A stretch of DNA of 64,000 nt from Dethiobacter alkaliphilus. Lineage in GTDB: Bacteria > Bacillota > Dethiobacteria > DTU022 > UBA8154. Made by a program: the position numbers and the translations under genes. The notes beneath the pieces were generated by a model that saw nothing but the letters and a program-made list of their open reading frames with translations, did no database searches and was not told the origin of the DNA. Of the stretch, positions 39,125 through 54,736 are shown one piece after another. Location of the stretch: NCBI GenBank assembly GCA_016841605.1, contig JAENYV010000001.1, positions 355,540-419,539 of the forward strand, in the 5' to 3' direction. Each line of letters begins with the position of its first letter. Positions within the stretch are counted from its first letter, which is position 1.

Positions 39125-40840
39125 TTGCGGTTGCGAATTATTTGCCTGGTGCTTTTCTTAGGTATAATTATTTTTATTTTAGAGGCATTCTCCGGTCCTA
39201 TCAAACAAATCTTTGAAAACCATTTTCTGCTTAAGCAGCTGTTTCAATATCCATCTGACGGAGCGAAGGAACAAGAAGCCGGGGTCGAAGACCCCAAACT
39301 TTTGGAAACAATTTATGTTACCATCCTGGGGAATGATCCCCAGTACGGATATAGTTTTGAAGAAATGAACGGTTTAACTCGCGAGGAAAGTCTTGAAAAA
39401 GATCCGCAATTGCCCATATTATTTCAAACTGAATTAGAACCGTTAAATCTTGATGAAGCAGGAGTTGAAACATTAACCCCCAATGCTACTATTGAACAGC
39501 GTGGTCAAAGCACCCGGAGGGCTATTTTAAAATCTTATAAAATTAGATTAGCAAGAGAGTTGGAATTATGGAATAATCAGAGGATCATTAATTTAAATAA
39601 ACATCCGAATGATTTCACCTCGGTGCGAAACAAGCTGAGTTTTGATTATTTTAAGCTTATTCCAAACCTGGTTAGTTCAGAAACGCAATTTGTTCGATTA
39701 TACGTCAGAGATTTGACATCTGCTTCGGGTGATAAGAATTTTATCGATTACGGCCTTTTTACCCATACGGAACAAATAGATAAAGATTTCTTACGACGTC
39801 ATGGTTTGGATCAGGACGGGTATTTATATAAAGTGGTCAACTTTGAGTTTTACCGTTATCCGGAGCTTCTTCGCCCTCACTATGACCCTTTTTACGATAG
39901 GGGGAAATTTGAGACCATTTTAGCCATCAGAGGCAGGGAATACCATGATCATTTTCTCCAAATGCTGGATGACGTGAATAACTTTGCATTGGATTTTAAT
40001 CGGGTTTTTGAGAAGTATTTTGATAAAGATAATTTTCTTGTCTGGATCGCAGTAAATATGTTAATAGGTAACCTGGATTCATCTTCAAATAACTTTTATT
40101 TGTACAGTTCCAGGTTTTCCAATAAATGGTACTTTGTGCCATGGGATTATGATGGGGCGTGGGATTTTTACTGGCAGTGGAGTACAGATCCTAAAAAGCT
40201 TCATCCGACAAGAGAAGGTCTCTCCCTTTACTGGGGGTGGCCATTGGTCAGAAGATTTTTTCAACAACCGGAGAATCTGGCAGCCCTTAATGAAAAGATT
40301 GAAGAGGTAGCACTAATCATTACGGAAGAGCGGACGAAAGCCTTTCTGGACGAGTACTTTCCGATTGTTCGTCTCTTGACATTGCAATTACCTGATGTGC
40401 AATTGCTACCGCATAATATTGAAAGATTCGATGAAGAATATTACAGCCTGGTACAGGTTCCGGAAAAAAGACGTGAAAAATATTACACTCTTTTGCATAA
40501 ACCGATGCCTATTTTTGTAGGAGGGCCCTGGATTAATGAAGACCGGATGACCTTTACCTGGTGGGACTCTTTCAGCCTACAGGGAAATGAAATATATTAT
40601 GATCTGCAAATTAGTCATGATCCGGTTTTTTCTGTTTTGTATTTTGAAGTCAAGGATTTGCAGGATACCGCATGGACAATGGAGATACTCCCTGCAGGCA
40701 GCTATTATTGGAGAATTATCATTCATGACAGTCAAGGAAATAAACAAATTCCCTTTGAAAGTCTGACGGTTAATAATACGCTCTACCATGGGGTGAAAGC
40801 CTTTACTATTGAAGAGGGGGGAGTGCTCCATGGAATATGA
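39125..40840 (+). CDS. CotH-family secreted/anchored protein kinase-like protein with C-terminal Fn3-like domain
   Basis: A 571-residue protein with an N-terminal membrane anchor or signal (about residues 4-22). The CotH region (about 120-430) carries QRGQSTRRAILKSYKIRL, DGYLYKVVNFEFYR, FLVWIAVNMLIGNLDSSSNN and FVPWDYDGAWDFYW, matching the CotH kinase fold, which in Bacillus phosphorylates spore coat proteins. The last about 115 residues (from about 450) look like a fibronectin-type beta domain. CotH-like genes next to VTC and DUF4956 genes recur near exopolysaccharide loci, so its target here may be a surface or envelope protein rather than spore coat. The start is TTG 39125 with GAGGGAGC about 9 bases upstream. 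Confidence 0.8.
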   Translation: MRLRIICLVLFLGIIIFILEAFSGPIKQIFENHFLLKQLFQYPSDGAKEQEAGVEDPKLLETIYVTILGNDPQYGYSFEEMNGLTREESLEKDPQLPILFQTELEPLNLDEAGVETLTPNATIEQRGQSTRRAILKSYKIRLARELELWNNQRIINLNKHPNDFTSVRNKLSFDYFKLIPNLVSSETQFVRLYVRDLTSASGDKNFIDYGLFTHTEQIDKDFLRRHGLDQDGYLYKVVNFEFYRYPELLRPHYDPFYDRGKFETILAIRGREYHDHFLQMLDDVNNFALDFNRVFEKYFDKDNFLVWIAVNMLIGNLDSSSNNFYLYSSRFSNKWYFVPWDYDGAWDFYWQWSTDPKKLHPTREGLSLYWGWPLVRRFFQQPENLAALNEKIEEVALIITEERTKAFLDEYFPIVRLLTLQLPDVQLLPHNIERFDEEYYSLVQVPEKRREKYYTLLHKPMPIFVGGPWINEDRMTFTWWDSFSLQGNEIYYDLQISHDPVFSVLYFEVKDLQDTAWTMEILPAGSYYWRIIIHDSQGNKQIPFESLTVNNTLYHGVKAFTIEEGGVLHGI

Positions 40841-41540
40841 AGGGAAAAAACTGAGAAATGAATTAAAATATTATTTGCATCCTTTTGAGTGCTCTTCACT
40901 GCGGGTCAGGATGGGGCACTTGCTGCAAAGGGACCGTCATTCCGTAACTGCTGACGGTTATCATATTCGCAGCCTCTATTTTGATGATTTCCATGATAAT
41001 GCTTTGTTTGAGAAGAACTTCGGAATCATGAAAAGAAAGAAATACAGAATAAGAATCTATAACAAAACGGATCAATCAATTAAGCTTGAGCGCAAATCCA
41101 AGTATGGTGAATATATCAGTAAAGAGTCCGCATTCCTTTCGCGACGGGAATACGAGCAAATTATCACAGGAGATGCACAATTCCTGCTTGAGCACCGGGA
41201 ACCGTTACTTCACCAATTTTATTACGGAATTACTGTCCATGGATTGCGTCCCAAGGTGATCGTAGACTATACCCGGGAAGCCTATACCTGGCCGCTGGGA
41301 GATGTGAGAGTGACCTTCGACAAAGGACTGGCAACGGTGATTAACTCGTTGAACATATTTGATATCCATGCAGTTCCTGTCTGTGTTTTCCGTAAACCCA
41401 TGGAAATCATGGAAGTTAAGTATACTGAATTTCTTCCTGTTTTTATTCGGGAAGTACTGGATTTTAATTGTTCAATCCGGAAGGCAATTTCCAAATATGT
41501 AATTTGCAGGGAATTTTTAAAAAATCATTACCATAATTAA
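40830..41540 (+). CDS. VTC-domain (polyphosphate polymerase-like) protein
   Basis: A 236-residue protein of the VTC family, the tunnel-fold domain that makes polyphosphate in yeast Vtc4. Basic and acidic tunnel residues are visible: RNELKYYL at the start, YHIRSLYFDD, KYRIRIYNK, IKLERKSKYGEYISKES, KVIVDYTREAY, VRVTFD and IMEVKYTEFLP. These match the triphosphate-tunnel pattern of alternating charged strands. The bacterial function is unproven: NTP or polyphosphate binding is expected, activity is inferred. The real start is ATG 40830 behind GAGGGGGGAG; it overlaps the CotH gene by 11 bp, showing coupling. DUF4956 follows. Confidence 0.88.
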   Translation: MEYEGKKLRNELKYYLHPFECSSLRVRMGHLLQRDRHSVTADGYHIRSLYFDDFHDNALFEKNFGIMKRKKYRIRIYNKTDQSIKLERKSKYGEYISKESAFLSRREYEQIITGDAQFLLEHREPLLHQFYYGITVHGLRPKVIVDYTREAYTWPLGDVRVTFDKGLATVINSLNIFDIHAVPVCVFRKPMEIMEVKYTEFLPVFIREVLDFNCSIRKAISKYVICREFLKNHYHN

Positions 41541-41573: not shown

Positions 41574-42251
41574 ATGGATATGGAGCAATTTACCTTCCGG
41601 AATATTTTAGACACCAGGCTGATAAACGGCTTACAGCCGATTACATTGGTTGATGCTGCTTTTAGCTTGTTTATTGCCTTATTGCTCGGACTGTTTATCT
41701 TTTTCATTTATAAAAAATGTTTCCGCGGTGTTGTTTATAATTACAGTTTTAATCTAACCTTGGTGCTTATGGCGATGATTACTGCACTGATAATTTTAAC
41801 GATCAGTACCAACATTATTTTGTCATTGGGTATGGTCGGAGCTTTGAGTATCGTGCGATTTCGCACGGCAGTTAAAGATCCCATGGATATTGCCTTTACA
41901 TTTTGGGCTATTTCCGCAGGTATTGCTACAGGCGCCAAAATTTACCCCATTGCTGTTTTTGGTTCTTTAATTATTGGACTAACTGTTTTTCTGTTGGCAA
42001 GATATAAAGTGAAAGGGCAGGCCTATTTACTCATTGTTCATTATACGGAAAAGGGGGATTATGCTGTAAACTATCATATTACCAGATTAAAGCATACTCT
42101 TAAATCAAAAACAATACGCGAAGATCATACCGAGCTGGTCGTTGAAATGAAAATTAAAGACGACAATACGGATTTTGTTAAAGAATTGGCTGTCATCGAA
42201 GGTGTGAACGATGTTTCTCTGGTAAGTTATACGGGGGATTATGCTCCTTAA
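41574..42251 (+). CDS. DUF4956-family membrane protein
   Basis: A 225-residue integral membrane protein with about four helices in residues 25-165 and a cytoplasmic C-terminal domain (about 170-225, ferredoxin-like with KDDNTDFVKELAVIEGVNDV). The family signature LSLGMVGALSIVRFRTAVKDPMD in pattern lies between helices, with conserved Arg and Asp residues. Function is unknown; genes of this family travel with VTC and CotH genes, and the three are probably one module here. AGGGGGGAG provides the ribosome binding site, 33 bp after the VTC gene. Confidence 0.85.
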   Translation: MDMEQFTFRNILDTRLINGLQPITLVDAAFSLFIALLLGLFIFFIYKKCFRGVVYNYSFNLTLVLMAMITALIILTISTNIILSLGMVGALSIVRFRTAVKDPMDIAFTFWAISAGIATGAKIYPIAVFGSLIIGLTVFLLARYKVKGQAYLLIVHYTEKGDYAVNYHITRLKHTLKSKTIREDHTELVVEMKIKDDNTDFVKELAVIEGVNDVSLVSYTGDYAP

Positions 42252-42309
42252 GAATAGAGCGGCATGATCGGACATGATTGGATTAACATAAAATAAAAGA
42301 GTGTGTGCA

Positions 42310-44073
42310 ATGGAAAAACAATTAAAGGTACTGTTGACAACTGAAGGAACTTATCCCTTTCATCAGGGTGGAGTCAGCACATGGTGCGATATTCTGGTCA
42401 AGGGGCTGAAGAGTGTTAAGTACACTATCTTTAGCGTCTTAATGGATCCCTTTGTGACTCAGAAATATGAGTTGCCGGAAACGGTGACTCTGATTAAGAT
42501 GCCGTTATGGGGAACTGAGGAACCCAGCGAACATCTTCCCATATCTTTTTCGCAAACATTCTTATCAAAAAAACGAACTACCGCTCAGTCTATTAGAAAG
42601 TTCTTTATACCTTTATTTGAAGAGCTTGTTGAAGAGGTTATCAGTTCCGTAAAGAATCCTGAGCATCTGGCTCAGATTATGCTTGATCTGCACCTCTATT
42701 TTCAATATTACGAGTATAAAGTTAGCTTCAAGTCCGAAGAGGCCTGGGAAGCATACAAAAAAATAGTATTAAATTATGCGAAAGATAAGGACAGCCGCTT
42801 ATCCCGGCCGGATGTCTATTGTCTAATTCAGAGTCTGGGTTGGATTTACCGTTTTCTAAATATATTGAACACGCCGGTTCCTGACGTTGATGTTACCCAT
42901 TCCACGGCCGCGGCCTTTTGCGGTATCCCATGCGTCTTGTCCAAAATAAAGAATAAAACACCTTTTTTGCTGACGGAACACGGTGTCTATCTGCGTGAGC
43001 AATATCTGTATCTGTCAAAAAGAGAATATTCTTCTTTTTTAAATACATTTCTGATCCGTCTGGTGCATTCTATTACCAGTCTCAATTATGTGTATGCGGA
43101 TCAGGTCTCTCCGGTTTGCGCTTATAATACCAGATGGGAAAGGGAGTTCGGCATACCGGAAGAAAAAATTAAAGTTATTTACAATGGTATTGATAAAAAT
43201 GTTTTTTTACATGCGCCAGGTCAAAAACCGGCCCGTCCGACAGTGGTAACAGCAGCCCGTATAGACCCCGTCAAGGATATTGAAATGTTGATCAAAGGAG
43301 CAGCGCTGGTAAAAAAACAGATTCCCGATATCCTTTTTCTGATTTACGGTTCTATTTCTGTGCCGGCATATTACCGGCAGTGTATGGAATTACGTAAAAA
43401 ATTATTTCTTGAGGAAACAGTGATATTTGCCGGTCATACCACGAATATTGCTGCAACTTATAAAAGTTGTGATTTGGTCGCCTTGACGAGTATTTCCGAG
43501 GCTTTTCCTTATACGGTCCTGGAAGCCATGATGGCAGGAACTGCTGTAGTATCTACGGATGTGGGAGGAGTTAAAGAAGCATTGGGATCTACCGGGGTAC
43601 TGGTCCCGGTTAGAGATCATGAAAAACTTGCTGCCGAAATAATTCATTTATTGAAGGAGCCTGAACTACGGCTAACCTTGGGGAAAGAGGCGCAGGAGCG
43701 CGCCTTATCTCTTTTTACCATAGACAGGGTTTTACAAAACCATCTGCAGAGCTATGAGCATCTGTTGGAAGATATACTCCAAACGGAAGAGCAGTCAGCC
43801 GATGTCAACGGTTGGGAAACAGTTATCTCCTTAACTGATAAATTACCGGAGCAGAGAATGTGGGTCGAACGCGCTTTGGCCGTCAAAGTCGCAGGTTATT
43901 TTGACGAAGCAATTTACTGCTTTCGCTCCGCGGTCAATGTAAATCCCGCTTCTCAAGCGATACCAATATTGCTTTTAGAGCTGGCCGAAATGTACAATCA
44001 GTTGGGCCGGTACGATTTGGCTTTTCAGGAGATGGAAAAATATGTAATATATTATGAATTATTAATTGCTTAA
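42310..44073 (+). CDS. pelF: PelF-like GT4 glycosyltransferase
   Basis: PelF is the cytoplasmic glycosyltransferase that polymerises the Pel polysaccharide from UDP-sugars. The N-terminal signature LLTTEGTYPFHQGGVSTWCD closely matches PelF, and the GT-B C-terminal domain has AARIDPVKDIEMLIKGA, GHTTNIAATYKSCDLVALTS and the EAFPYTVLEAMMAGTAVV motif with the E-x7-E nucleotide-sugar site. It is 588 residues, about 80 longer than Pseudomonas PelF; the added C-terminus (about 515-588) looks like one or two TPR helices (YFDEAIYCFRSAVNVNP). The GTG at 42301 is in frame, but ATG 42310 is more likely. It opens the Pel-like part of this operon. Confidence 0.87.
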   Translation: MEKQLKVLLTTEGTYPFHQGGVSTWCDILVKGLKSVKYTIFSVLMDPFVTQKYELPETVTLIKMPLWGTEEPSEHLPISFSQTFLSKKRTTAQSIRKFFIPLFEELVEEVISSVKNPEHLAQIMLDLHLYFQYYEYKVSFKSEEAWEAYKKIVLNYAKDKDSRLSRPDVYCLIQSLGWIYRFLNILNTPVPDVDVTHSTAAAFCGIPCVLSKIKNKTPFLLTEHGVYLREQYLYLSKREYSSFLNTFLIRLVHSITSLNYVYADQVSPVCAYNTRWEREFGIPEEKIKVIYNGIDKNVFLHAPGQKPARPTVVTAARIDPVKDIEMLIKGAALVKKQIPDILFLIYGSISVPAYYRQCMELRKKLFLEETVIFAGHTTNIAATYKSCDLVALTSISEAFPYTVLEAMMAGTAVVSTDVGGVKEALGSTGVLVPVRDHEKLAAEIIHLLKEPELRLTLGKEAQERALSLFTIDRVLQNHLQSYEHLLEDILQTEEQSADVNGWETVISLTDKLPEQRMWVERALAVKVAGYFDEAIYCFRSAVNVNPASQAIPILLLELAEMYNQLGRYDLAFQEMEKYVIYYELLIA

Positions 44074-44105: not shown

Positions 44106-45353
44106 ATGGCAGTAAAAATAGGTCGCTCCATTTGGGGTATCCAGCCCGGATCCTTTCATGAACTTCGCAAGTATTTGCAGACGAAGCATAGTCAACAGAA
44201 GGGGAGGTTATACCAATTAGTCCAGGATCTACAAAATGAAAATAAAAGAATACAGATGCGGATTGACTTTTTTTACTCGCCGGGTCCTGAGACATTTTTA
44301 GAAGCCAAATTGCCGGAAGTTCATGCCTCGCCGATTAGATGGGAAGAATCCTGGTTTGAAACACAATATCGTTTTACGATTCGTTTTAAAAAAAGTATAT
44401 TTGGCTTAAATAGTAAAAAGGTTAAGTTGTATCTCCGGCAGCTTTTAAAGATGCAACAGATTGATCTGGAGGAAAGCCGGCAGAAGCTTAATATATTGTC
44501 GGAAAAGCATAAAAAACTGCTGTTTGAGCTGTCTTCCCTCGAAAATATTTATAACGCTAATGCGGAGGAAGAAGCTGCAGCTTCGCTCCCTTTACCGGAA
44601 CAGGAAACAAATGAAGATAATGAAAATCTAGAAGACGAAGAAAACAGGGAAGAAGAAAAAGAAGAGATTAAGTTTCAGGAAAAGATGCGGGAACAATTTG
44701 AAGCCGAATGGAGAGAAAGATTGGAAGAACAAATCAAAGAACTTATGCTGCAGAAATTAAAAGGACAATTGTTGGTCGGAGGAGCGGAAGCGGGAGAAAA
44801 AGAAGAGTCCTGGATTGGAGACATTAAAGAACTAATGAAACAAAAAATATTAAAGGAGCAGAAGCAGAATGATGGTTATCATTCGAAAGTAATCGCCTCT
44901 CAACCCAAGGGGAAGCGTCGGAATATTTTCAGTTCTCCCACCACGTTTCCCAAGCTACGGTTAACAGTAAACGGTTCATCTTTTTGGGATGAAGATATTG
45001 AATCTTTATTGTCGCAGTACACTTGGGATGATGAGGATGGGGGCTTTTTCTCAGCACCCTCACCTTCTTTCCCACAGCCTGAAATAAAGGTGGAAAATGG
45101 TAACAACCATCAAGATTACCACATCGGATCCATAGAATCAAAAGGAAGCCCGGCGATTACCAATCAAGTCCACCTGCTCAAGAAAAAATACATTGTCGGT
45201 AAACTGGCAGGGAGCGACCTTAAAGATAGCGGTGGAAAGATGATTATTTCAAAAAACGAAGTTATTACGGAACAAGTGATGAATCAGGCTGAAGAGGAGG
45301 GAAAGCTGGCCGAGTTGATTGTCAACATGGTAATTCCCGGGTTAGGTGATTAA
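44106..45353 (+). CDS. Undescribed coiled-coil protein with DivIVA-like and PRC-barrel-like ends in the Pel-like operon
   Basis: I do not recognise this 415-residue soluble protein as a known Pel component. Two similar N-terminal stretches, IGRSIWGIQPGSFHELRKYL (about 5-24) and FKKSIFGLNSKKVKLYLRQL (about 93-112), resemble the membrane-targeting motif of DivIVA proteins, each followed by helix. A highly charged coiled coil (about 115-235, rich in Glu) and a low-complexity middle follow. The last about 60 residues (KKYIVGKLAGSDLKDSGGKM and the ITEQVMNQAEEEGKLAELIV region) resemble a PRC-barrel-like end domain. It may be a scaffold that organises the synthase. It lies 33 bp after the PelF-like gene and 2 bp before the PelG-like gene. 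Confidence 0.7.
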   Translation: MAVKIGRSIWGIQPGSFHELRKYLQTKHSQQKGRLYQLVQDLQNENKRIQMRIDFFYSPGPETFLEAKLPEVHASPIRWEESWFETQYRFTIRFKKSIFGLNSKKVKLYLRQLLKMQQIDLEESRQKLNILSEKHKKLLFELSSLENIYNANAEEEAAASLPLPEQETNEDNENLEDEENREEEKEEIKFQEKMREQFEAEWRERLEEQIKELMLQKLKGQLLVGGAEAGEKEESWIGDIKELMKQKILKEQKQNDGYHSKVIASQPKGKRRNIFSSPTTFPKLRLTVNGSSFWDEDIESLLSQYTWDDEDGGFFSAPSPSFPQPEIKVENGNNHQDYHIGSIESKGSPAITNQVHLLKKKYIVGKLAGSDLKDSGGKMIISKNEVITEQVMNQAEEEGKLAELIVNMVIPGLGD

Positions 45354-45355
45354 CT

Positions 45356-46969
45356 ATGGATGTATTTGAACCGGAAATCTTCAATGATGAAGGGGAAAAG
45401 CAGCAAAAACTAAACAGCCTGTTAAAACAAATCAAAGCCCTGCGTCTTCAACCGGAGGATCGCTACGAGATTGCCGCTTTACTTGAATCAATGGGATGGA
45501 ACGATGAGGGAGCACGGAAGAATTTCGGCGTTACTGATATCTTTGAACTGGCCTCCCAATTATGGGAGATCAGCAAATCGAATATTATTTTTTCTCCATT
45601 TCATCATATTGAGAAAACAGGTTTTGTTCAAGGGCTGTATTTGCTTATTTCCAACTTTTTAAGAGGTGTGATTTTTGCGCTGCCTATGGCAGTTTCCGTA
45701 TTTTCAATGATTACCTTGCGGTTTTCCCTCTGGTCTTATGAAAATTTATCGGTGGAACTAGCTACAGCTATTGCTATCGGCACAATTTTAAGCTTCGTAA
45801 CAGTTGGCGGTTTTATGCAGGCAATTGCCAGGCGCGGGTTTTTTTACATCACACAAAATTATTACGGTATGGCACGTAAGGTCACCTTTCAATTAATTAT
45901 AATCGGAATTTTTGCCTGCCTGGTCATTTCCGCCTGTTTATTTTTCGGAAATGCCCTTATTCAGCTCTTTCCATTCGGCCTGGTTCTCATAATTATTCTG
46001 TATTACTTTTTTTTAAACACTATCTGGTTATCTGTCACTGTTATGTATATTTTAAAAAAGGAGCTTGTTTTTACGGGTTTAATTATTATCGGAATCGGTA
46101 TTGTCTATCTGCTGTTTGTCGTATTTGCTTATAACATCATTTTTTCGCAACTGATCAGTTTGCTCCTGATTTCTTTAATGAGCATCGGTTTAGCTGTTTT
46201 CTATTTCAGAAGAGCGGAGGCCAAGGCAGAAAAAGGAATTGAACCGAAGCTTCCGAAAATGTCTGTGATGATTTATAATACGATGCCTTATTTTATCTAC
46301 GGTTTCTTGTATTTTGCCTTTTTATTTGTTGACCGGGTCATAGCCTGGTCTGTAAACAGCACTTTTTTGCCTTATCTTATTTGGTTTCGTGGAGATTATG
46401 AATTGGGTTTGGATTTTTCGTTACTGGTTTTATTAATTCCAATGGGTATTATTGAAGTACTCTTATTTAAACTGATGATAAATATTCAGCAGAGCCAAAA
46501 AAATTACTGGGGACAGGATATTGATAAAATGAACCGCGCCTATGTTCGGAAATATTTTCTTCGTTTATTTTTCATTTTTGTCGTTGCCATGTTTAGTGCC
46601 GTATTCCTGTATTATTATCTAGGTATATTTCTAGATAATATACATCCTGCATTAGGAAAGATTATTTATCAACATCCGGTAACTCATTTTGTCTTTATTT
46701 TTTCTTTGGCTTCTTATGGTTTTTTGTCTTTGGGGTTAATGAATTCCGTTACATTGTTTTCTTTATCCCAGCCCCAAAAAGTCAACAGAGCTATTACAAT
46801 TGCCTTGTTGGCAAATTTACTTGTAGGTTTCCTTTTGAGCCGTTGGTTCGGTTACAAGTTCGCTGTCATCGGTTTGATCACCGGATCAATAGTTTTTTTT
46901 ATTTTGTCATCACGGCAAGTTTATAAGGTCATGCGAAAACTGGATTATTACGTGTACTCCTCTTCGTGA
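45356..46969 (+). CDS. pelG: PelG-like polysaccharide transporter/flippase
   Basis: A 537-residue membrane protein with about twelve helices (from residue about 90 to 530), the size and topology of PelG, a MOP/MATE-related protein that moves Pel across the membrane with PelF. The GGFMQAIARRGFFYITQNYY region after the third helix corresponds to PelG by position. It differs from Pseudomonas PelG in having an N-terminal cytoplasmic extension of about 90 residues rather than starting with the short GIGFELRKL segment. It begins 2 bp after the coiled-coil gene, so translation is coupled. The call rests on topology, size and position next to PelF more than on strong motifs. Confidence 0.7.
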   Translation: MDVFEPEIFNDEGEKQQKLNSLLKQIKALRLQPEDRYEIAALLESMGWNDEGARKNFGVTDIFELASQLWEISKSNIIFSPFHHIEKTGFVQGLYLLISNFLRGVIFALPMAVSVFSMITLRFSLWSYENLSVELATAIAIGTILSFVTVGGFMQAIARRGFFYITQNYYGMARKVTFQLIIIGIFACLVISACLFFGNALIQLFPFGLVLIIILYYFFLNTIWLSVTVMYILKKELVFTGLIIIGIGIVYLLFVVFAYNIIFSQLISLLLISLMSIGLAVFYFRRAEAKAEKGIEPKLPKMSVMIYNTMPYFIYGFLYFAFLFVDRVIAWSVNSTFLPYLIWFRGDYELGLDFSLLVLLIPMGIIEVLLFKLMINIQQSQKNYWGQDIDKMNRAYVRKYFLRLFFIFVVAMFSAVFLYYYLGIFLDNIHPALGKIIYQHPVTHFVFIFSLASYGFLSLGLMNSVTLFSLSQPQKVNRAITIALLANLLVGFLLSRWFGYKFAVIGLITGSIVFFILSSRQVYKVMRKLDYYVYSSS

Positions 46970-46984
46970 AATGAGGAAAATAGT

Positions 46985-48787
46985 GTGATTAATGCTTCAA
47001 TGTCTCATTTGTTTAACCAGTTACCGGAAATTTTTCATTACTTATTTGCCTTATTCCTTCTGTTAATTTTCATACCCAAAATTTTTTTTAAAAAACAATA
47101 TAATAAGCCGGGCGAGCAAATAATTACTAATTTCGTGAAGATGACCTTTCTACTTCTAGTTATGGGTTATCTTTTGGTCATGCTAAGACTATTTGAATTT
47201 CTATCCATTGTTTTCATGCTTACTTTTATCGGCAAACATTTAGCTGGAATTTATCTAAAAGGGGGAAGTATCGGGCAGCAAATTTCACATTCCGAAGTGT
47301 TAATTTATGATTACTTTGAAGGTAAATATCAACTGAAGCCGCTTTTCTTTTTTTACCTCAACCAATGCTACCGGCAATGCAAAACAATTTTTCAAGAATA
47401 TTCTTCCACGCCCCTGCGGACAATTGAAACAGTCAGCTTACTTGTTATCCTCGGCTTTTCTTTATATCTACGTTTTAATGATGCCTTACTACATTCTGCA
47501 CCTTCATTTTTGGATCTGTATACAGCCTTAAAATGGATTAAAGATATCCGGCAAAATTTGTTATTCAGTGACGGGATTATACCCCAGGGCTTTCATGTGT
47601 TTTGGGCTGTAATGGAAGAATTCAGCCGTATCGATACGTTATACATTGTTAAATACAGCGGTCCCTTCATGCAAGTTTTTCTTATGTTCGGCATTTATCT
47701 TGTTTTATCTCTTCTTACCGGCAGCCGTATTAGCGGAGTAATAAGCATGTCTTCGTATGCTTTATTAGGGCAATATTTCGACCCTTATTACTGGGATTGG
47801 CAAGCAGTAGCTGCACCCGGGTCATTTGCCCATATCTTTCTTTTACTAACTTTTTTTTGTCTTGTCGTCTACCTGCGCAGTGGACATCAGGATGCGTTTT
47901 ATACGATGTTTGCGGGTATGGGAATAATCGCTTTTGTTCACCCGGCAAGTTATTGTGAGTTTTTTATTTTTATCTGTGCCGTCAGCATTTGGGCGGTTGT
48001 TTTTAAGGTGAAGAAGAGGTATTCATCTCTTCCCCGAGTCTTTCTTTTTGGATTAATAGCGGGTACCGTCTCTTTGATCCCGGTCCTCGTGGAATTTATC
48101 GGCAGGCAAGATGTTGCTTTTTCTTTTCTTAATTATTTACAAATTGAAGCGGAGAAATCTTTTTCTTTGCTGCCGTTTCCTTCCCATGTACCGTTGATAT
48201 TCAGCCTGGCTGTCGGTTTTTTGTGGCATGTTCTTTTTAAACGGTTCAGGACTTACCGCTACCAGCCTCTCATAGAAAGATTGCTGCTAATATCTGCCCT
48301 CATTTCTGCTTTTAGTTTGACGGTTCGGCAACCTGTTGAGCCGTTAAAGGTAGATTGGGATTCATCTGTAGCCCAATATCTGGCCGTAACAAAAGAAATC
48401 AGCCCTCTAAACTGGATGATTGTTTCTAAACAGGAATTTTCCTCCCTGGTTCAAGGCAGGGGGTATCATATGAATATTGAAGAGTTGATTAAAAATTATG
48501 ATCCGGCTTATCAGAGCTTGACTCGAATAGGATTCGATAAACCGGATATGAATATTCCACCCCACATTTTTATTATTTATGAAAAATTTCTCAGACCCGT
48601 TCCGCGGGAAGAGGTCATGAAAAGACTTACAAATAATTATTACAAGAGATGGTCGCTACTGTATCAGGAGATTGGACTTTGGCTGAAAAATTTTTTGCAT
48701 ATACATCCGCAAGTGGAAGTATATTTTGAAGATGAACATATCATCATCTTTCACCTGGAACGTGAACAAGATCCTGATGAAATTTAA
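46985..48787 (+). CDS. Large membrane protein with GT-C-like topology, unknown function
   Basis: A 600-residue protein with about ten to eleven membrane helices in the first 440 residues and a soluble C-terminal domain of about 150 residues. The arrangement, with a long first loop after LRFNDALLHSAPSFLDLYTA carrying Asp residues and the GIIPQGFHVFW segment, resembles GT-C glycosyltransferases that use lipid-linked donors, but no defining motif is certain. It is not a standard Pel gene; it occupies the position where PelE might be expected. The start is GTG at 46985 with GAGG upstream. Tight spacing to the PelG-like gene (15 bp) places it in the same operon. Confidence 0.65.
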   Translation: MINASMSHLFNQLPEIFHYLFALFLLLIFIPKIFFKKQYNKPGEQIITNFVKMTFLLLVMGYLLVMLRLFEFLSIVFMLTFIGKHLAGIYLKGGSIGQQISHSEVLIYDYFEGKYQLKPLFFFYLNQCYRQCKTIFQEYSSTPLRTIETVSLLVILGFSLYLRFNDALLHSAPSFLDLYTALKWIKDIRQNLLFSDGIIPQGFHVFWAVMEEFSRIDTLYIVKYSGPFMQVFLMFGIYLVLSLLTGSRISGVISMSSYALLGQYFDPYYWDWQAVAAPGSFAHIFLLLTFFCLVVYLRSGHQDAFYTMFAGMGIIAFVHPASYCEFFIFICAVSIWAVVFKVKKRYSSLPRVFLFGLIAGTVSLIPVLVEFIGRQDVAFSFLNYLQIEAEKSFSLLPFPSHVPLIFSLAVGFLWHVLFKRFRTYRYQPLIERLLLISALISAFSLTVRQPVEPLKVDWDSSVAQYLAVTKEISPLNWMIVSKQEFSSLVQGRGYHMNIEELIKNYDPAYQSLTRIGFDKPDMNIPPHIFIIYEKFLRPVPREEVMKRLTNNYYKRWSLLYQEIGLWLKNFLHIHPQVEVYFEDEHIIIFHLEREQDPDEI

Positions 48788-48809: not shown

Positions 48810-50669
48810 ATGGGCACCTTTTTTTTCTGGGAGCAGCATATTTTCTGGGTCGCGACCGTGTCACTGCTTTTCTCTGTTGGCGTTTTGTTTTATCTGGGCT
48901 TAAACCGGGGAAGACTCAAGAGAGTTGAGAGTCAGCTGCAGCAGATCAAAGAGTTAATCCAAACCGTCAATCCGGAGAAAAGCCTGGAGGAAAACCTGGA
49001 CCGGATCTTGGAAATGATCGCATCGTTAGAGATGTTAAAAGCTCCAACCTACACATTTTATGTATTGGATAAAAAAAAGCAAAATTATAACCTTAAGGCG
49101 GTTCGTTATCAAGCGCAGGATTATGGTGAAGTCCGCCCCTCCTATAGTGGGTTGGTGTCCTTTCAGGAGGGTACTTATCAGCCGCCCTTATCTATACCGG
49201 TCTCCCGCCGTGTTTATGCAGTTACGAAGAAATTTGAAGGAGAGATGCCATTATTTTTTCTGCCGGTTGGTGAAACAGGTCTAATCCTGGTCGGTCCCCT
49301 GGAGCATCTTTCGCAAGAACAGCTGGTCATGCTTGAAGCTCTCAGCGGGCAAATAAAATATATCTTGCACAGTTTGGTGAAAACGGAAGATATTCGTTCC
49401 CAGGCGGATGTTGTGGTGTCCTCCGGAAAAGCTCTGCAAAAAATTAGTAGTATTTCCATGGACTGGACGATATTGATGGAGATGATTATTAAACTATATA
49501 TCCAATCTATTAACGCAAGCGGTGGCATTTGTGTGAAAAAAGCAGGAGAAAGCTATGAAATCGTAATCAAGGTCGGACTGGATAAAACGACAATTAAGGC
49601 ATTTGGCGAAAATAAGAAAATTTTCGAAACCTTTCATGATTATCTAAATAGTAAGAACTTCCATTATATCAGCAGGAGCGATGAGTCCTATTACAAATTA
49701 CCGTCTTTTCTAGCTGCTGCAGGCATGGCATCAATACTTATTACCAGGATGGATGAAGATAATACCTCCTATCTTGTGTTCTGGTTTGAGGATGAGCCCG
49801 ATGAAAAAGAAATAGAGAAAAAGGTAACCCTGGGGCTGATGTTGGAACATATCCGGACAGTAATTGAATATCAAAAAGGATTGCAAAGATTTTCCTTTGC
49901 TTATCTGGATATCCTTAAAATTTTGGCTCGACTATTGGACAATATAAGTCCATATACGATCGGTTATTCGGAAATGATGAGCCGTTATTCAGTCATTATT
50001 GCACGCTGTCTTGGACTGGATGAGGAAATAACCAAAGACATTGCTCTGGCGGCGTATCTGAGTAATATCGGGGTGCTCGGTCTATCCGGCACATTATTTG
50101 AGAAGGAAGGAAAATACTCGGAAGCAGAATTCGAACTAATGAAGCTTCACTCCGAGGTCGGCGCTTCCATCGTTCAGATGGCCACAGGGAATGAGCGTAT
50201 CGCCTCTTTTATTTTGCATCACCATGAAAGAATAGATGGGCATGGTTATCCCTCCGGACTGGAAGAGGAAGAAATTCCTGTCGGTGCGAGGATAATTGCT
50301 GTAATCCAAACATTTATTGCGAAAATTATCGGCAGAAAATACCGGGACCCTTTACCCTTCAATGAAGCACTGGAGCTAATAAAAGCTGCCTCAGGTTCCC
50401 AGTTGGACAAACATCTAGTCGAGGTTTTTTGTCAATGGTATCGAGAGAAACGGACAAAACCCGCCGTTTCCGGTCGCACCCTCGGTAAATGCTGGGCTGT
50501 TTTATGCGTCCCGGCAAGTATCTGTCTGAATTGCCCTGCTTACCGGACAGAGGGGAATATACCATGCTGGGAGACCAATGATACGCAATGTGCATTTCAT
50601 GGTAAGAAATGTCATACCTGTCTTATCCGGACTGAATTTATATCCAGAGAATCTTTAAAGGATGATTAA
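48810..50669 (+). CDS. Membrane-anchored GAF/degenerate HD-GYP protein with cysteine-rich tail
   Basis: A 619-residue protein: one N-terminal membrane helix (about 9-30), a coiled coil, one or two GAF-like regions (about 60-190 and 200-350), an HD-GYP domain (about 370-560) and a C-terminal cysteine cluster (CWAVLCVPASICLNCP, then CWE and CHTC). HD-GYP enzymes cleave c-di-GMP, but here the metal site is broken: the HD pair is Ser418-Asn419 (YLSNIG) and the later Asp is lost (AVIQTF), while HHE (471-473) and GYP (479-481) remain. It is probably a c-di-GMP sensor or scaffold, in the place where PelD, a dead GGDEF c-di-GMP receptor, acts in Pseudomonas. The Cys tail may bind metal or Fe-S. Confidence 0.78.
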   Translation: MGTFFFWEQHIFWVATVSLLFSVGVLFYLGLNRGRLKRVESQLQQIKELIQTVNPEKSLEENLDRILEMIASLEMLKAPTYTFYVLDKKKQNYNLKAVRYQAQDYGEVRPSYSGLVSFQEGTYQPPLSIPVSRRVYAVTKKFEGEMPLFFLPVGETGLILVGPLEHLSQEQLVMLEALSGQIKYILHSLVKTEDIRSQADVVVSSGKALQKISSISMDWTILMEMIIKLYIQSINASGGICVKKAGESYEIVIKVGLDKTTIKAFGENKKIFETFHDYLNSKNFHYISRSDESYYKLPSFLAAAGMASILITRMDEDNTSYLVFWFEDEPDEKEIEKKVTLGLMLEHIRTVIEYQKGLQRFSFAYLDILKILARLLDNISPYTIGYSEMMSRYSVIIARCLGLDEEITKDIALAAYLSNIGVLGLSGTLFEKEGKYSEAEFELMKLHSEVGASIVQMATGNERIASFILHHHERIDGHGYPSGLEEEEIPVGARIIAVIQTFIAKIIGRKYRDPLPFNEALELIKAASGSQLDKHLVEVFCQWYREKRTKPAVSGRTLGKCWAVLCVPASICLNCPAYRTEGNIPCWETNDTQCAFHGKKCHTCLIRTEFISRESLKDD

Positions 50670-51451
50670 TGATGAAAGAACGCAGGGAATTGTTTCAAAA
50701 AGCCCGCAGTTATGCTTTGTATTATGGAAAGAGTGAAGCTGGTAAATTGGCCCATTATGATATGGTCATTGTTGAACCGGGTGCTCAATCGGCAAAAAAT
50801 ATTCAAGCTTTACATGCAATGAAAACGTTGGTTTTTGCTTATGTCTCCATTATGGAAATCGGCCCTCTTCATACCCTGTACCCGATGCTGAAGGAAGAAG
50901 ATTTCCTGCAGGTTAAAGGGAACAAAATTTGCAAGGAAGGTTACGATACGTATGTGCTCAATTTAAAATCAAAAAGATGGTTGGGTCTATTGTATCACCA
51001 TATCGGTAATCTCCTCCTGCACCAGGGATACGATGGTATTTTTATGGATACAATTGGTAACGCGGAAGACCCGATTATTCCTCTAATTGAAAAAAAAGCG
51101 CAAATCACCAAAGCAACAGAGCTGGTACGCAATCTTCGCCGGTTGTTCCCAAACCATGTCCTGATTCAAAATAATGGCCTGGAATATTTATGTTCGCAAA
51201 CAGGAGAATATCTGGACGGATTATGCTGGGAAAACCCCCTATTTGCCTATGCTGATAGTCAGGAATGGTGCCGAAAAATATTGGAGAGAATCGTTGGATT
51301 AAAAAGGAAATATGGTGTGAGAACGCTTTTTCTGCATAATGAAAGCCAAATTCGCATGACACCGTCAGCCGGAATTCGAGCACAAGCGATCGCGGATAAA
51401 TATGCTTTTTTATATTATACTGCCGGGGATCATTATCTGGCGCTTCCGTAG
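50669..51451 (+). CDS. GH114/TM1410-like glycoside hydrolase-type protein (PelA-hydrolase-like)
   Basis: A 260-residue TIM-barrel protein. Family features are visible: SYALYYG near the start, HYDMVIVEPG, FAYVSIMEIG, GYDGIFMDTIGN (with a catalytic-type Asp), and LIQNNGLEYL. The GH114/GH166 group cleaves galactosamine-containing polymers, and PelA in Pseudomonas has a related hydrolase domain acting on Pel. No signal peptide is present, so the enzyme would be cytoplasmic unless exported otherwise; no separate deacetylase domain is attached. It starts 1 bp inside the stop codon of the preceding gene (ATG 50669; ATG 50672 possible), so it is coupled to the HD-GYP-like gene. Confidence 0.78.
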   Translation: MMKERRELFQKARSYALYYGKSEAGKLAHYDMVIVEPGAQSAKNIQALHAMKTLVFAYVSIMEIGPLHTLYPMLKEEDFLQVKGNKICKEGYDTYVLNLKSKRWLGLLYHHIGNLLLHQGYDGIFMDTIGNAEDPIIPLIEKKAQITKATELVRNLRRLFPNHVLIQNNGLEYLCSQTGEYLDGLCWENPLFAYADSQEWCRKILERIVGLKRKYGVRTLFLHNESQIRMTPSAGIRAQAIADKYAFLYYTAGDHYLALP

Positions 51452-51516: not shown

Positions 51517-52419
51517 ATGAAGGTTTTGGTTACAGGGGGCGCCGGTTTTATTGGTTCTCATTCTGTCGCAGTGTTGAAAGAAGAAGGTCATCATGTAGCT
51601 GTTGTTGATAATATGTTGAAGGGTAAGGAGGAAAATCTTCAGCCGGAGGTGCAGTATTACCCTGTAAATATTTTGGGAGAAGAGCTGGACCGCATATTCC
51701 GGCGTGAAGAGCCGGAGGCAGTGCTCCATCTTGCCGCGCAGGTTGATGTTGCTTCTTCCCGGATAGATCCCCGGTATGATGCAATGAACAACATTATGGG
51801 AACAATTGCGGTTTTAGAAAAGTGCAGAGCATATCAGATACGTAAAATTATCTTCTCCTCATCTGCAGCTGTCTATGGAACGCCTTTATCTTTACCTCTG
51901 GATGAAGAACAGAAGCCGGAACCTCTCTCATTTTACGGTTTATCCAAATTAACAGCAGAACGATATATTGAAAAATATTGTCAAGAAGCTGGAATGGAAT
52001 ATACAATCTTACGTTACAGCAATGTCTATGGTCCGAGTCAAAAGCTTAAAGGAGAGTCCGGCGTTATTTCTATCTTTTACAATTTAATGAGAAAAGGCCT
52101 AATACCGGTTATTTATGGTGATGGAAGGCAAACGCGGGATTTTATTTATGTAAAGGATGTAGCTCAGGCTAATATGGCATCAATGCGCTCAATTGATAAT
52201 GGAATAATAAATATTGGCACAGGAACGAGCATTTCCGTTCTTGAATTGTATAATATGATAAGTAAAATGATGGGCAATAACAGTCCGGCTTTGTTCAGCG
52301 AGCAACGACCGGGAGATATAAAAGACAGTTGTCTCAATATACACAAAGCGAAGAGTGTGTTGTCATGGAAGCCTTTATATCAGATCTCTAGCGGTTTATC
52401 AGAACTTATTGAGGGTTAA
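51517..52419 (+). CDS. NAD-dependent UDP-sugar epimerase (GalE/WbpP-like)
   Basis: An extended short-chain dehydrogenase of 300 residues: N-terminal NAD motif TGGAGFIGSH (GxxGxxG), catalytic Ser/Thr region SSSAAVYG, YxxxK active site in FYGLSKLTAERY, and the sugar-binding end RPGDIKDS. It interconverts UDP-glucose/galactose or the N-acetyl forms. Pel is a galactosamine-rich polymer, so supplying UDP-GalNAc for the PelF-like enzyme is the likely job, as PelX does in some bacteria. It is the last gene before a double terminator. A UDP-glucuronate epimerase or decarboxylase cannot be fully excluded. Confidence 0.88.
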   Translation: MKVLVTGGAGFIGSHSVAVLKEEGHHVAVVDNMLKGKEENLQPEVQYYPVNILGEELDRIFRREEPEAVLHLAAQVDVASSRIDPRYDAMNNIMGTIAVLEKCRAYQIRKIIFSSSAAVYGTPLSLPLDEEQKPEPLSFYGLSKLTAERYIEKYCQEAGMEYTILRYSNVYGPSQKLKGESGVISIFYNLMRKGLIPVIYGDGRQTRDFIYVKDVAQANMASMRSIDNGIINIGTGTSISVLELYNMISKMMGNNSPALFSEQRPGDIKDSCLNIHKAKSVLSWKPLYQISSGLSELIEG

Positions 52420-52455
52420 CGAGCCAAAAGCCGCCGGATGGCGGCTTTTGGCTCG
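52420..52455. terminator. 16-bp perfect hairpin terminator after the Pel-like operon
   Basis: CGAGCCAAAAGCCGCC (52420-52435) pairs perfectly with its inverse at 52440-52455 around GGAT. The inner AAAAGCCGCC/GGCGGCTTTT core is a classic intrinsic terminator able to act in both directions. Confidence 0.85.
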
Positions 52456-52694: not shown

Positions 52695-53879
52695 ATGCGG
52701 AACAGTCTTTCTTTAAAAAGAAGCGCTTTTATTTATTTTTGTGTTGCTGCGTTTCTCTTCCTGCTTTTTTCAGGGATATTCAAATTAATTCTTAATGTTG
52801 AGGAAAAATTTTCGATGGCTGCTAGGCAGAAGGAAAACATGAAGCAGGACATTCTAGCCGTAGTTAGTTCCAGTTTAACCGAAGAAGAGGTTTTACAAGT
52901 AGTGGCCGATCATTTTGTTGTTGATTTTGGCCTTATCGGCGGTGCCGTTTTACAAAGCAACCCTCCTCAGTATGTCCTGCTGGAAACTATGGGGCAGTTA
53001 ATGGAATACGCTGCTCTCGTTGGATGTGAAACACTATTTTCCAAGGCCTGGGGTATTACACAAAAGCATATGCTTTCTGCGGAAGGCTATTTTTACTGGC
53101 GCAGAGAGGCAGAAAATCCTTATCATCCTGACGAATGCACGGCTTTGGTTGATGTTTTCCGGCTTTTCAGAGCGCTGATTACGGCCGGGGGGGTTTTTGG
53201 TGATCTATCTTATGAAAAAGATGCGGTAAAGGTCGCCGAATCAATCTGTACTTTTAATCAGGAAGGCGGCCTATTCAGCGATAGTTTTGACGGCAGTTTG
53301 AATTTGAGTGACCAGAGGCTTTCTCTTTTTTATATCGACTATACCGCTTTAACTCATATGGCAAAGCTGCTGCCTGAAGCTGTACCGGTGTGCCGGAAGA
53401 CAATCGAAGTCCTGATGCAGGCTCCTGTCAATGAGTACGGCTTTTTTCCCCTTTATTATGATATCGGCAAGAAGCAATATCAATTTTCTTCCGAGGTAAA
53501 TATGATTGAATGCTTGTACACTGCTTGCATGGCCCTGGAGTCAGGAAAAGATATCGGGGCTTTGCTGGACTTTTTAAAACAGGAATTAGAACTACGCGGG
53601 AAAATTTTTAATTACTATAACTATACCGATGCTCTGCCGCTTACAGGTGACGAGTCTACAGCCTTATATGCTCTTGTTGCCCGTCTTTTCGCTAAAGCCG
53701 ATGATCCGGAGGCAGCCCGGAAATCTTTGCAACTTATGCTGAACTTCCGGATCAGGGAGCAGGAGAGCCTTTTATGCGGAGGATTCGGCGATTTTGACTC
53801 TTCCGGTTCAACTTTATATGCCTTTGATCAATTTGAGGCTTTACAGACAATATCTTTTCTAGGGAGAAATCAGTTTTGA
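52695..53879 (+). CDS. Membrane-anchored GH8-like (alpha/alpha)6 protein
   Basis: A 394-residue protein with one N-terminal membrane helix (about 10-32) and an extracytoplasmic helical-barrel domain. Repeated helix pairs (LETMGQLMEYAALVGCETLF, AEGYFYWRREAENPYHPDEC, DYTALTHMAKLLPEA, STLYAFDQFEALQT) resemble family 8 endoglucanases such as BcsZ/CcsZ, which trim the nascent polymer in cellulose loci. The catalytic Glu of GH8 may correspond to Glu in LLETMGQL, but the fit is only by eye. It is the first gene of a Bcs-like operon, so a polymer-processing role is expected. GGTGATT precedes the ATG. A related non-catalytic polymer-binding barrel is the main alternative. Confidence 0.7.
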   Translation: MRNSLSLKRSAFIYFCVAAFLFLLFSGIFKLILNVEEKFSMAARQKENMKQDILAVVSSSLTEEEVLQVVADHFVVDFGLIGGAVLQSNPPQYVLLETMGQLMEYAALVGCETLFSKAWGITQKHMLSAEGYFYWRREAENPYHPDECTALVDVFRLFRALITAGGVFGDLSYEKDAVKVAESICTFNQEGGLFSDSFDGSLNLSDQRLSLFYIDYTALTHMAKLLPEAVPVCRKTIEVLMQAPVNEYGFFPLYYDIGKKQYQFSSEVNMIECLYTACMALESGKDIGALLDFLKQELELRGKIFNYYNYTDALPLTGDESTALYALVARLFAKADDPEAARKSLQLMLNFRIREQESLLCGGFGDFDSSGSTLYAFDQFEALQTISFLGRNQF

Positions 53880-54736
53880 AAAAGCGAGAGAAGAAAACCC
53901 TTCGTAGCGATCTGATTTTATTTAATATCATGGTGCTTATCTACCTGGTCGCCATAGCTATCATGTTAGGCACCGGCAGCAGTGTCAACCTGCAGAGCTT
54001 CATCGTGGCCGCCAGTATGTCCTTAAGTATAATTGTGGGCTATAATATGGGGTTGATTCAGGGTCTCTTTACTTCTCTGGCTTTTGTCTTTCTTTACGGC
54101 ACTTACCTGCTGTATGGAAGCCTTATCTCGGGCCAGTATGCAGAAGTGAAAGTTGATACGGTTATCTGGCTTTTTTGGGTTCCCCTTGCTGCCTTTGTGA
54201 CCGGTCACTTAAGAAATGCTATTGATAATATTTTTACCTTGCAGGATAAATATAGTGCAATAGAACGTTTCATTACAGTTGACGAGCTCACCGGGATGTC
54301 CAATGCCCAGGGTTTTTTCCAGAAGCTGGAAGAAGAGGTAAGCCGGGCCAAACGCTTTAAGCAACCTCTTTCCCTTCTCTTTATCGTTATCCATAATCTA
54401 AACGAGATGTCGAAAATATATGGAGTAAACGGTGTTGCTGAAATTCGGAAAGCGATTGCTGAGAAAATAAATGACAATACCCGTAAGGTTGATCTCAAGG
54501 GAATTGTTGAAGACAACTCTATCGGTCTTATCTTAACAGGAACAAATCTGGAGGGAGCAGAGGTAGTACAGAGGAAGATTTATCTCGCCCTGGGGAGAAT
54601 CAGCGTTCTCATCGAAGGAAAAAAGAAAGTAATTAAGCTCAAGGTAATTATCGGCAAAGCGACTTTTTCGGATGAGGAGGATAGCCTGAGTTTTTATGAC
54701 AAGGCCAAAGAAGATAACAGGTTTGCGGTTGGTTAA
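53876..54736 (+). CDS. Membrane protein with degenerate GGDEF domain (PelD-like c-di-GMP receptor candidate)
   Basis: A 286-residue protein: three to four membrane helices (about 15-115), a short helix, and a GGDEF-fold domain (about 130-285) recognised from TVDELTGMSNAQGFFQKLEE and LFIVIHNLNEMSKIYGVNG. The active-site GGDEF is replaced by EDNSI, so no cyclase activity is expected. The inhibitory-site RxxD is kept (Arg203, Asp206) at the correct distance, five residues before the lost motif. A dead GGDEF with intact RxxD is exactly how PelD binds c-di-GMP. In this operon the GT2 lacks a PilZ domain, so this protein may be the c-di-GMP sensor. TTG 53876 overlaps the preceding stop codon (TTGA), with GGGAG upstream. 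Confidence 0.8.
   Translation: MKKREKKTLRSDLILFNIMVLIYLVAIAIMLGTGSSVNLQSFIVAASMSLSIIVGYNMGLIQGLFTSLAFVFLYGTYLLYGSLISGQYAEVKVDTVIWLFWVPLAAFVTGHLRNAIDNIFTLQDKYSAIERFITVDELTGMSNAQGFFQKLEEEVSRAKRFKQPLSLLFIVIHNLNEMSKIYGVNGVAEIRKAIAEKINDNTRKVDLKGIVEDNSIGLILTGTNLEGAEVVQRKIYLALGRISVLIEGKKKVIKLKVIIGKATFSDEEDSLSFYDKAKEDNRFAVG

What the first reader, a model, noticed from the sequence alone, without database searches (positions are those of the whole stretch)
48810..50669. HD-GYP without HD in a Pel-like operon, with an added Cys cluster
Ser418-Asn419 replace the HD pair and a downstream metal-binding Asp is missing, while HHE and GYP remain. GAF domains and a C-terminal cluster of about nine cysteines are attached. 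A metal or Fe-S-containing, non-catalytic HD-GYP as Pel regulator in place of PelD would be new to me.
Basis: partly seen in the sequence, partly recalled or inferred. Interest (0 to 1): 0.62.

Follow-up and report, generated by a model that had tools for sequence, protein, structure and literature searches.

The report
HD-less HD-GYP protein in Pel-like operon
A gene in a biofilm-sugar operon encodes a protein built like an enzyme that destroys the signal molecule c-di-GMP, but its metal-binding catalytic residues are gone while residues that grip the molecule remain, so it has probably become a sensor that switches the sugar machinery on or off.

Summary
ORF 48810-50669 (619 aa) is an HD-GYP protein with Ser418-Asn419 in place of HD; His189, Asp305, Lys225 and Asp308 of the structural model PmGH are also replaced (Tyr386, Gln500, Val422, Ile503). 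HHE, GYP and the base-contacting Arg509/Arg512 remain. It lies inside a PelF operon ending at a strong terminator. The gene is a regular partner of this operon type: all 8 of 398 sampled phylum genomes with a close PelF carry it within about 17 kb, and three more were found elsewhere. But the HD loss is private: the other 10 members keep H-D. Those 10 share a milder change, HDxGM instead of HDxGK plus N/T/V for Asp308, against 0 of 35 other HD-GYP domains. The Cys cluster, conserved in 8 of 11, is related to NCBIfam's two-CW domain, also found in chemotaxis receptors, so it is not unique. Best reading: a membrane-anchored, non-hydrolysing c-di-GMP receptor doing PelD's job. Non-catalytic HD-GYP receptors are known (DvhD, PA2572), so this is a new variant of a known kind. 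Binding, output and metal in the Cys module are untested.

The parts
48810..50669 (+). HD-less HD-GYP protein, 619 aa: N-terminal hydrophobic helix, one GAF-like and one uncertain sensor domain, HD-GYP domain, C-terminal two-CW-like Cys module
   Evidence: ORF; Pfam HD_5; orthologs
48837..48905 (+). predicted N-terminal membrane helix (about residues 10-32)
   Evidence: read from the sequence (hydrophobic run); helix 2-29 in a low-confidence model
48930..49379 (+). first sensor domain (about residues 41-190), GAF-like
   Evidence: profile of 5 orthologs matches 3ci6 (PtsP-type) at E 1.2e-4 over profile 46-118; no Pfam match
49380..49880 (+). second sensor domain (about residues 191-357), fold unproven, poorly conserved
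   Evidence: 12-19% identity to orthologs; low-confidence alpha/beta pattern
49881..50453 (+). HD-GYP domain (residues 358-548) with S418-N419 for HD, Y386 for H189, Q500 for D305; H447, H471-H472, GYP 479-481, R509, Y511, R512 kept
   Evidence: alignments; model with pLDDT mostly 65-96 in 383-548, nearest folds DvhD Z 24.4 and PmGH Z 23.3
50454..50666 (+). C-terminal Cys module (residues 549-619; CWx3C...CPAY...CWx6Cx2Hx3Cx2C), related to the two-CW domain
   Evidence: alignment A2 and 8-row alignment; profile comparison
39125..40840 (+). CotH-kinase-like protein, first gene of the operon
   Evidence: Pfam CotH E 3.2e-53
40809..41540 (+). VTC (polyphosphate polymerase-like) protein
   Evidence: Pfam VTC E 2.7e-35
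41574..42251 (+). DUF4956 membrane protein
   Evidence: Pfam DUF4956 E 1.1e-10
42301..44073 (+). PelF glycosyltransferase
   Evidence: NCBIfam NF038011 PelF, 160.3 bits against a cut-off of 100
44106..45353 (+). conserved operon protein of unknown family
   Evidence: no Pfam/NCBIfam match; C-terminal part conserved in orthologous operons
45356..46969 (+). PelG-like membrane protein (weak family match)
   Evidence: PF16933 E 0.16, 11.3 bits, below its cut-off of 29; about 30-49% identical to proteins in orthologous operons
46985..48787 (+). large membrane protein; two copies in most orthologous operons
   Evidence: no family match over a cut-off
50669..51451 (+). GH114 (PelA-hydrolase-type) glycosidase; its start codon overlaps the stop codon of the HD-GYP gene by one base
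   Evidence: Pfam GH114 34.9 bits, cut-off 27; neighbour of the HD-GYP gene in all 11 members
51517..52419 (+). GalE-like epimerase, last gene of the operon
   Evidence: Pfam Epimerase E 1.4e-59; TIGR01179 214.6 bits, below its cut-off of 262.3
52420..52455 (+). strong terminator-like hairpin (16 pairs) directly after GalE
   Evidence: pattern scan

Best explanation
The protein is a membrane-anchored pseudo-phosphodiesterase that works as a c-di-GMP receptor for the Pel-like polysaccharide machinery, filling the place that PelD holds in Pseudomonas and Bacillus. Shown: the HD-GYP fold, the loss of the catalytic HD and of four of eight metal ligands, the retention of most nucleotide-contacting residues, and the fixed partnership with close PelF loci. 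Inferred: c-di-GMP binds in the old active-site pocket without being cut, the dimeric HD-GYP and its helical stalk change shape, and this is passed to the membrane synthase/export complex; the sensor domains and the Cys module modulate it. The family had already changed second-shell catalytic residues (HDxGM) before this lineage lost the metal site altogether.
For: Fold: Pfam HD_5 E 1.2e-30; model best matched to DvhD (Z 24.4, rmsd 5.0 over 195) and PmGH (Z 23.3, rmsd 2.6 over 183), nearly tied. Dead catalysis: H189Y, H221S, D222N, K225V, D305Q, D308I. Binding residues kept: GYP, I294, R314, K317 as Arg; of DvhD's nine reported canonical-site residues, Y523, Y621, R650, Y652 and R653 are identical here (5 of 9). 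Precedent for capture without cutting: PmGH-c-di-GMP was seen with only the G-site iron (PMC4159591), DvhD with no metal and effective Kd 99 nM (PMC13090378). Constraint: of 45 HD-GYP columns invariant in 7 orthologs the window keeps 36, including H250, H276, H277, GYP, I294, R314 and Arg at K317, while 4 of its 9 changes are metal or catalytic positions; identity loss relative to siblings is similar to PelF and PelG. System link: present in 8 of 8 close-PelF genomes of 398 (the chance calculation, made when 7 were known, gives 8e-11 after leaving out the two genomes used to build the profile), always next to GH114; 10 of the 11 members were put in a tree and form one side of a branch, apart from 35 other HD-GYP domains and PmGH, support 98/95.
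Against: No binding or phenotype data. Four of nine DvhD canonical-site residues (L577, K582, M646, E668) and all three bridging-site residues differ here. The first sensor domain is only weakly GAF-like and the second is unproven. Ten of 11 family members keep H-D and may still be enzymes, so 'receptor' is not shown for the family. The odd-one-out test is not exceptional by count alone (L046 changes 8 of 44). The window's HD-GYP branch is at least twice as long as those of its nearest siblings, which relaxed selection would also give. PelD absence could not be shown with a working control.
Confidence: 0.5

Rival explanations
1. Operon-local phosphodiesterase that died here. The family's ordinary role is to hydrolyse c-di-GMP (or a related dinucleotide) near the Pel machinery; the window copy is a decaying or redundant remnant with no current nucleotide role.
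For: 10 of 11 members keep H189, H221, D222, H250, H276, H277 and D/E at D305; the window branch is long (0.76 against 0.08-0.36 for L027-L030); several active-site positions fell together.
Against: The reading frame, the Cys module (13 of 15 invariant columns kept), most binding residues and the operon place are all kept. All 10 HD-bearing members lack K225 and D308, both essential in PmGH, so they may not be ordinary enzymes either.
Confidence: 0.25
2. Sensor or scaffold without nucleotide binding: the protein reads its GAF-like and Cys modules (redox, metal or a small molecule) and acts on the Pel complex by protein contact; the HD-GYP domain is only a dimer and docking platform.
For: Two-CW-type modules sit in chemotaxis receptors, which are sensors; the Cys module is kept in 8 of 11 members irrespective of the HD state; c-di-GMP turnover proteins can also act by protein contact, as stated in PMC3411652 (passages).
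Against: Pocket residues are kept while metal residues are lost; three members (L034, L035, L112) lack the Cys module and yet keep the gene.
Confidence: 0.15
3. Still a weak hydrolase, of c-di-GMP or of another substrate such as pGpG or 3'3'-cGAMP, using the remaining H447/H471/H472 site.
For: The three His remain; E185A and D305A of PmGH kept some activity.
Against: H189, H221, D222, K225 and D308 are all gone, and each single Ala mutant at these sites abolished PmGH activity; DvhD with comparable losses was inactive with all ions tried.
Confidence: 0.04

Closest known systems
DvhD of Desulfovibrio vulgaris (PDB 9RBZ, 9RC0)
   Same: HD-GYP fold with the HD pair replaced (SQ there, SN here), canonical c-di-GMP contacts Y523, Y621, R650, Y652, R653 conserved, membrane-anchored, biofilm system
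   Different: DvhD has a periplasmic dCache and a PAS domain, lacks the double His, controls a protease/adhesin system; bridging-site residues are not conserved here; no Cys module is described in the passages seen
PelD (Pseudomonas aeruginosa, Bacillus cereus)
   Same: membrane-anchored protein of a Pel-type operon with a sensor domain and a catalytically degenerate c-di-GMP-family output domain
   Different: PelD uses a degenerate GGDEF with an RxxD site; here it is a degenerate HD-GYP, plus a Cys module
PA2572 of Pseudomonas aeruginosa (YN-GYP)
   Same: HD-GYP with a replaced HD pair, no detectable hydrolysis, regulatory role
   Different: response regulator with REC domain; studied with a chemotaxis sensor partner, not as part of a polysaccharide operon
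PmGH of P. marina EX-H1 (PDB 4MCW)
   Same: GAF plus HD-GYP, same fold, same base-contacting residues (Arg for K317 here)
   Different: active tri-iron phosphodiesterase with all eight ligands
two-CW domain (NCBIfam NF045718)
   Same: CW-C-CPA-CW-C-C-C pattern; profile match between the two sets
   Different: the Pel-linked version is shorter before the final CxxC and is not recognised by NF045718 itself

Membership tests
HD-GYP domain family | HD_5 fold with GYP motif | tested here: met
   Pfam HD_5 E 1.2e-30; GYP 479-481; structural matches
HD-GYP phosphodiesterase (active enzyme) | HD pair and metal ligands H189, H221, D222, D305; K225 | tested here: not met
   Y386, S418, N419, Q500, V422
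HD-GYP phosphodiesterase (active enzyme) | measured c-di-GMP hydrolysis | not testable with these tools
   needs an enzyme assay
PelD | degenerate GGDEF with RxxD site (PF16963) | tested here: not met
   no GGDEF or PelD_GGDEF match in this protein; PF16963 in none of 11 PelF genomes, but without a positive control
PelD | N-terminal membrane region followed by a GAF domain | tested here: inconclusive
   one hydrophobic helix read from sequence; weak GAF-type match, no Pfam match
Pel-type operon | PelF | tested here: met
   NF038011 160.3 bits, cut-off 100
Pel-type operon | PelG | tested here: inconclusive
   PF16933 11.3 bits, cut-off 29
Pel-type operon | PelA hydrolase-type domain (GH114) | tested here: met
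   34.9 bits, cut-off 27
DvhD-type c-di-GMP receptor | HD pair replaced | tested here: met
   S418-N419
DvhD-type c-di-GMP receptor | canonical c-di-GMP site residues | tested here: inconclusive
   5 of 9 identical
DvhD-type c-di-GMP receptor | bridging c-di-GMP site (K520, P567, R569) | tested here: not met
   0 of 3
DvhD-type c-di-GMP receptor | c-di-GMP binding without metal | not testable with these tools
   needs a binding assay
two-CW domain (NF045718) | match to the NCBIfam model | tested here: not met
   no match for the window segment or for the other 4 members of A2
two-CW domain (NF045718) | relationship by profile to proteins that do match it | tested here: met
   Pel-linked profile hits L093, L098, L104, which match NF045718 at the same place (L093 34.6 bits just under the cut-off of 35, L098 and L104 over it); hhalign probability 94.5 percent, E 1.5e-8, with rows partly recruited by the same profile

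The most novel reading that the evidence does not exclude
A whole clade of Pel-like operons uses an HD-GYP-derived, metal-site-altered protein (HDxGM, and in this lineage no HD at all), mostly with a two-CW-like Cys module, as its c-di-GMP receptor instead of PelD, joining c-di-GMP input with a metal or redox signal to polysaccharide synthesis.
Probability: 0.35. Interest if true: 0.7.

Novelty: new variant of a known kind. Interest (0 to 1): 0.5.

Why it matters
Pel production is switched on by c-di-GMP through PelD's dead GGDEF domain. If a different dead c-di-GMP enzyme, an HD-GYP, does the same job in another branch of Pel-like operons, the control point was invented twice from the two opposite halves of c-di-GMP metabolism. 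The family also gives a natural series, from HD-bearing HDxGM members to a member with no HD, in which the passage from enzyme to receptor can be measured directly. In the library searched I saw no paper describing an HD-GYP receptor in a Pel-type operon; most were seen as listings only.

Tried and rejected
Rejected: that the HD-less state is a feature of the operon type (10 of 11 members keep H-D). Rejected: that the Cys cluster is an addition special to this protein. Rejected: that the degenerate GGDEF protein at 53876-54733 is the PelD of this operon; it lies beyond a 16-pair terminator-like hairpin in a separate pss-like operon, and no match to it was seen among the blast matches in the orthologous Pel regions.

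Limits of counts: 'close PelF' means E <= 1e-80 to the window's PelF in 398 evenly drawn genomes; more distant PelF loci, such as those with a classical PelD, are not in the denominator. In one search a pattern filter kept 9 of 12 candidate two-CW segments. The 35 background domains (38 loci given, duplicates dropped, some loci with two domains) come mostly from hits of the window's own protein or domain, so they lean towards similar ones. L112 was found after the tree and is not in it (one search has 10 of 11 members); the column test used 8 of 11.

Full report
Observation. The ORF at 48810-50669 is intact and translates to 619 residues. Its start lies 22 bases after the preceding stop and the next gene's ATG overlaps its stop codon by one base, so it sits within a tight operon. 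Pfam HD_5 covers residues 371-536 at E 1.2e-30. Against PmGH, whose eight metal ligands are E185, H189, H221, D222, H250, H276, H277 and D305 (PMC4159591, passages), the window has Y382, Y386, S418, N419, H447, H471, H472 and Q500; the second-shell residues K225 and D308 are V422 and I503. Tyr at E185 is common in HD-GYP domains (17 of 35), so the real losses are H189, H221, D222 and D305, with K225 and D308. Ala mutants of H189, H221, D222, K225 and D308 abolish PmGH activity; D305A keeps a little.

Setting. The operon runs CotH-like, VTC, DUF4956, PelF, unknown 44106-45353, PelG-like, membrane protein 46985-48787, this gene, GH114, GalE-like, and ends in a 16-pair terminator-like hairpin at 52420-52455. 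PelF is solid (NF038011, 160.3 bits, cut-off 100); PelG is only a weak family match (11.3 bits, cut-off 29). CotH, polyphosphate polymerase and DUF4956 are accessory genes reported beside Gram-positive pel loci (PMC7112168, passages). There the c-di-GMP receptor is PelD, with a degenerate GGDEF. No such domain was found in this operon, but the PelD search had no positive control.

A regular partner. In 398 genomes of the phylum 8 have a close PelF (E <= 1e-80). A profile of the N-terminal half of this protein, which avoids ordinary HD-GYP proteins, hits 7 of the 398, all among those 8; the eighth, G516, has a more distant copy next to GH114. So 8 of 8. The chance calculation made with 7, leaving out the two genomes used in the profile, gives 8e-11. 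All are on the same contig as PelF, about 3 to 17 kb away. Three more full-length orthologs come from the order of G099 (4 of 73 genomes there including G099, 32-34% identical). In the window's own family only 1 of 23 genomes, and in its class 1 of 97, has it, namely the window's own. In all 11 the GH114 gene is the direct neighbour. In a tree of 46 HD-GYP domains the 10 members included form one side of a branch with support 98/95.

The active site across the family. All 10 other members keep H189, H221, D222, H250, H276 and H277, and have D or E at D305. But all 10 have Met in place of K225 (HDxGM) and N, T or V in place of D308. In 35 other HD-GYP domains K225 is Lys in 34 and never Met, and D308 is never N, T or V. 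The family had thus changed its catalytic second shell before the window lineage lost the metal site. Of 45 HD-GYP columns invariant in 7 orthologs the window changes 9; four of these are H189, H221, D222 and the K225 position; GYP, I294, R314, Arg at K317, H250, H276 and H277 stay. By number alone 9 is not exceptional, since L046 changes 8 of 44. Identity to the four nearest orthologs is 47-48% for HD-GYP, 49-52% for PelF and 47-49% for PelG, while those four among themselves (the close pair L028/L029 aside) have 56-64%, 59-62% and 55-57%. The window lineage is therefore fast in all three genes, and the HD-GYP gene not much more so. Its branch in the tree is nevertheless long for its group (0.76).

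How it may work. In PmGH c-di-GMP was trapped uncut when only the G-site iron remained (PMC4159591). In DvhD, where HD is SQ and the double His is also gone, c-di-GMP binds at effective Kd 99 nM with no metal seen and is not hydrolysed, and binding splays the helical stalk (PMC13090378, passages). Of the nine canonical-site residues named there five are identical in the window (Y382, Y480, R509, Y511, R512), four differ, and the bridging site is not kept. A model made with six paralogs is confident only in the HD-GYP part (block means mostly 65-96 in 383-548) and is matched about equally well by DvhD and PmGH (Z 24.4 and 23.3). I therefore propose a membrane-anchored receptor that binds c-di-GMP in the old pocket and passes the state to the synthase, as PelD does. 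Fold, residue losses and operon partnership are shown; binding, direction of control and contacts are inferred.

The Cys module. Seven Cys (one shifted by a residue in some rows) and a His are shared by 8 of 11 members; L034, L035 and L112 lack the module. Its profile finds weak matches in further genomes, 28 of 398 in all. Of ten such ORFs scanned, nine are chemotaxis receptors with MCP and HAMP domains, and in the three of those also scanned with NCBIfam the two-CW domain NF045718 lies at the same place; two short ORFs scanned there had no such match. A profile comparison gives 94.5% and E 1.5e-8, partly circular because rows were recruited by the same profile; the window segment alone scores 18.6 bits on a two-CW model against at most 5.7 in 100 shuffles. 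Eight ligands would suit two zinc sites or an Fe-S cluster, which is inference only.

Sensor domains. GAF is supported only for the first domain, by a profile match to 3ci6 at E 1.2e-4 (that 3ci6 is a GAF domain is recalled); Pfam finds none in 5 members. The second is poorly conserved (12-19%).

Known or new. HD-GYP proteins without HD are known: PA2572 (YN-GYP, no detectable hydrolysis, PMC3411652, passages) and DvhD. A dead c-di-GMP enzyme as receptor in a Pel operon is known as PelD. The new part is the combination, a Pel-operon HD-GYP clade with HDxGM and in one lineage no HD, mostly with a two-CW-like module. Searches of the library for HD-GYP with PelF or as a receptor listed no such report; I read only passages of the five papers cited. 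Verdict: real, probably a non-catalytic receptor, a new variant of a known kind.

Noticed in passing
window 52695-59759 (+): A second polysaccharide operon, like Listeria pss: unknown protein, degenerate GGDEF protein of 286 aa (EDNSI at the GGDEF place, RKVD five residues upstream as an I-site), DUF2334 protein, PgaC-like GT2, BcsB. Listeria PssE (DKDDA, RxxD) is the I-site c-di-GMP receptor of such an operon (PMC4125290, passages).
   Followed up: partly
L003 (G000:C27:5909-6433): A second HD-GYP protein in the same genome has Asn-Asn in place of His-Asp but keeps K225, D305 and D308.
   Followed up: no
L067: An HD-GYP paralog of G205 with Tyr at H189 and Asn at K225 while HD is kept.
   Followed up: no
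L045:13768-13854 (+): c-di-GMP-I riboswitch, 72.2 bits, about 5.8 kb downstream of the HD-GYP gene of G433.
   Followed up: no
window 46985-48787 and orthologous regions: A large membrane protein of no known family, single here but in two copies beside PelG in most orthologous operons.
   Followed up: no
L088, L090, L092, L094, L087: Short ORFs (81-147 aa) carrying a two-CW-like Cys pattern without another recognised domain (L088 has no Pfam match).
   Followed up: partly
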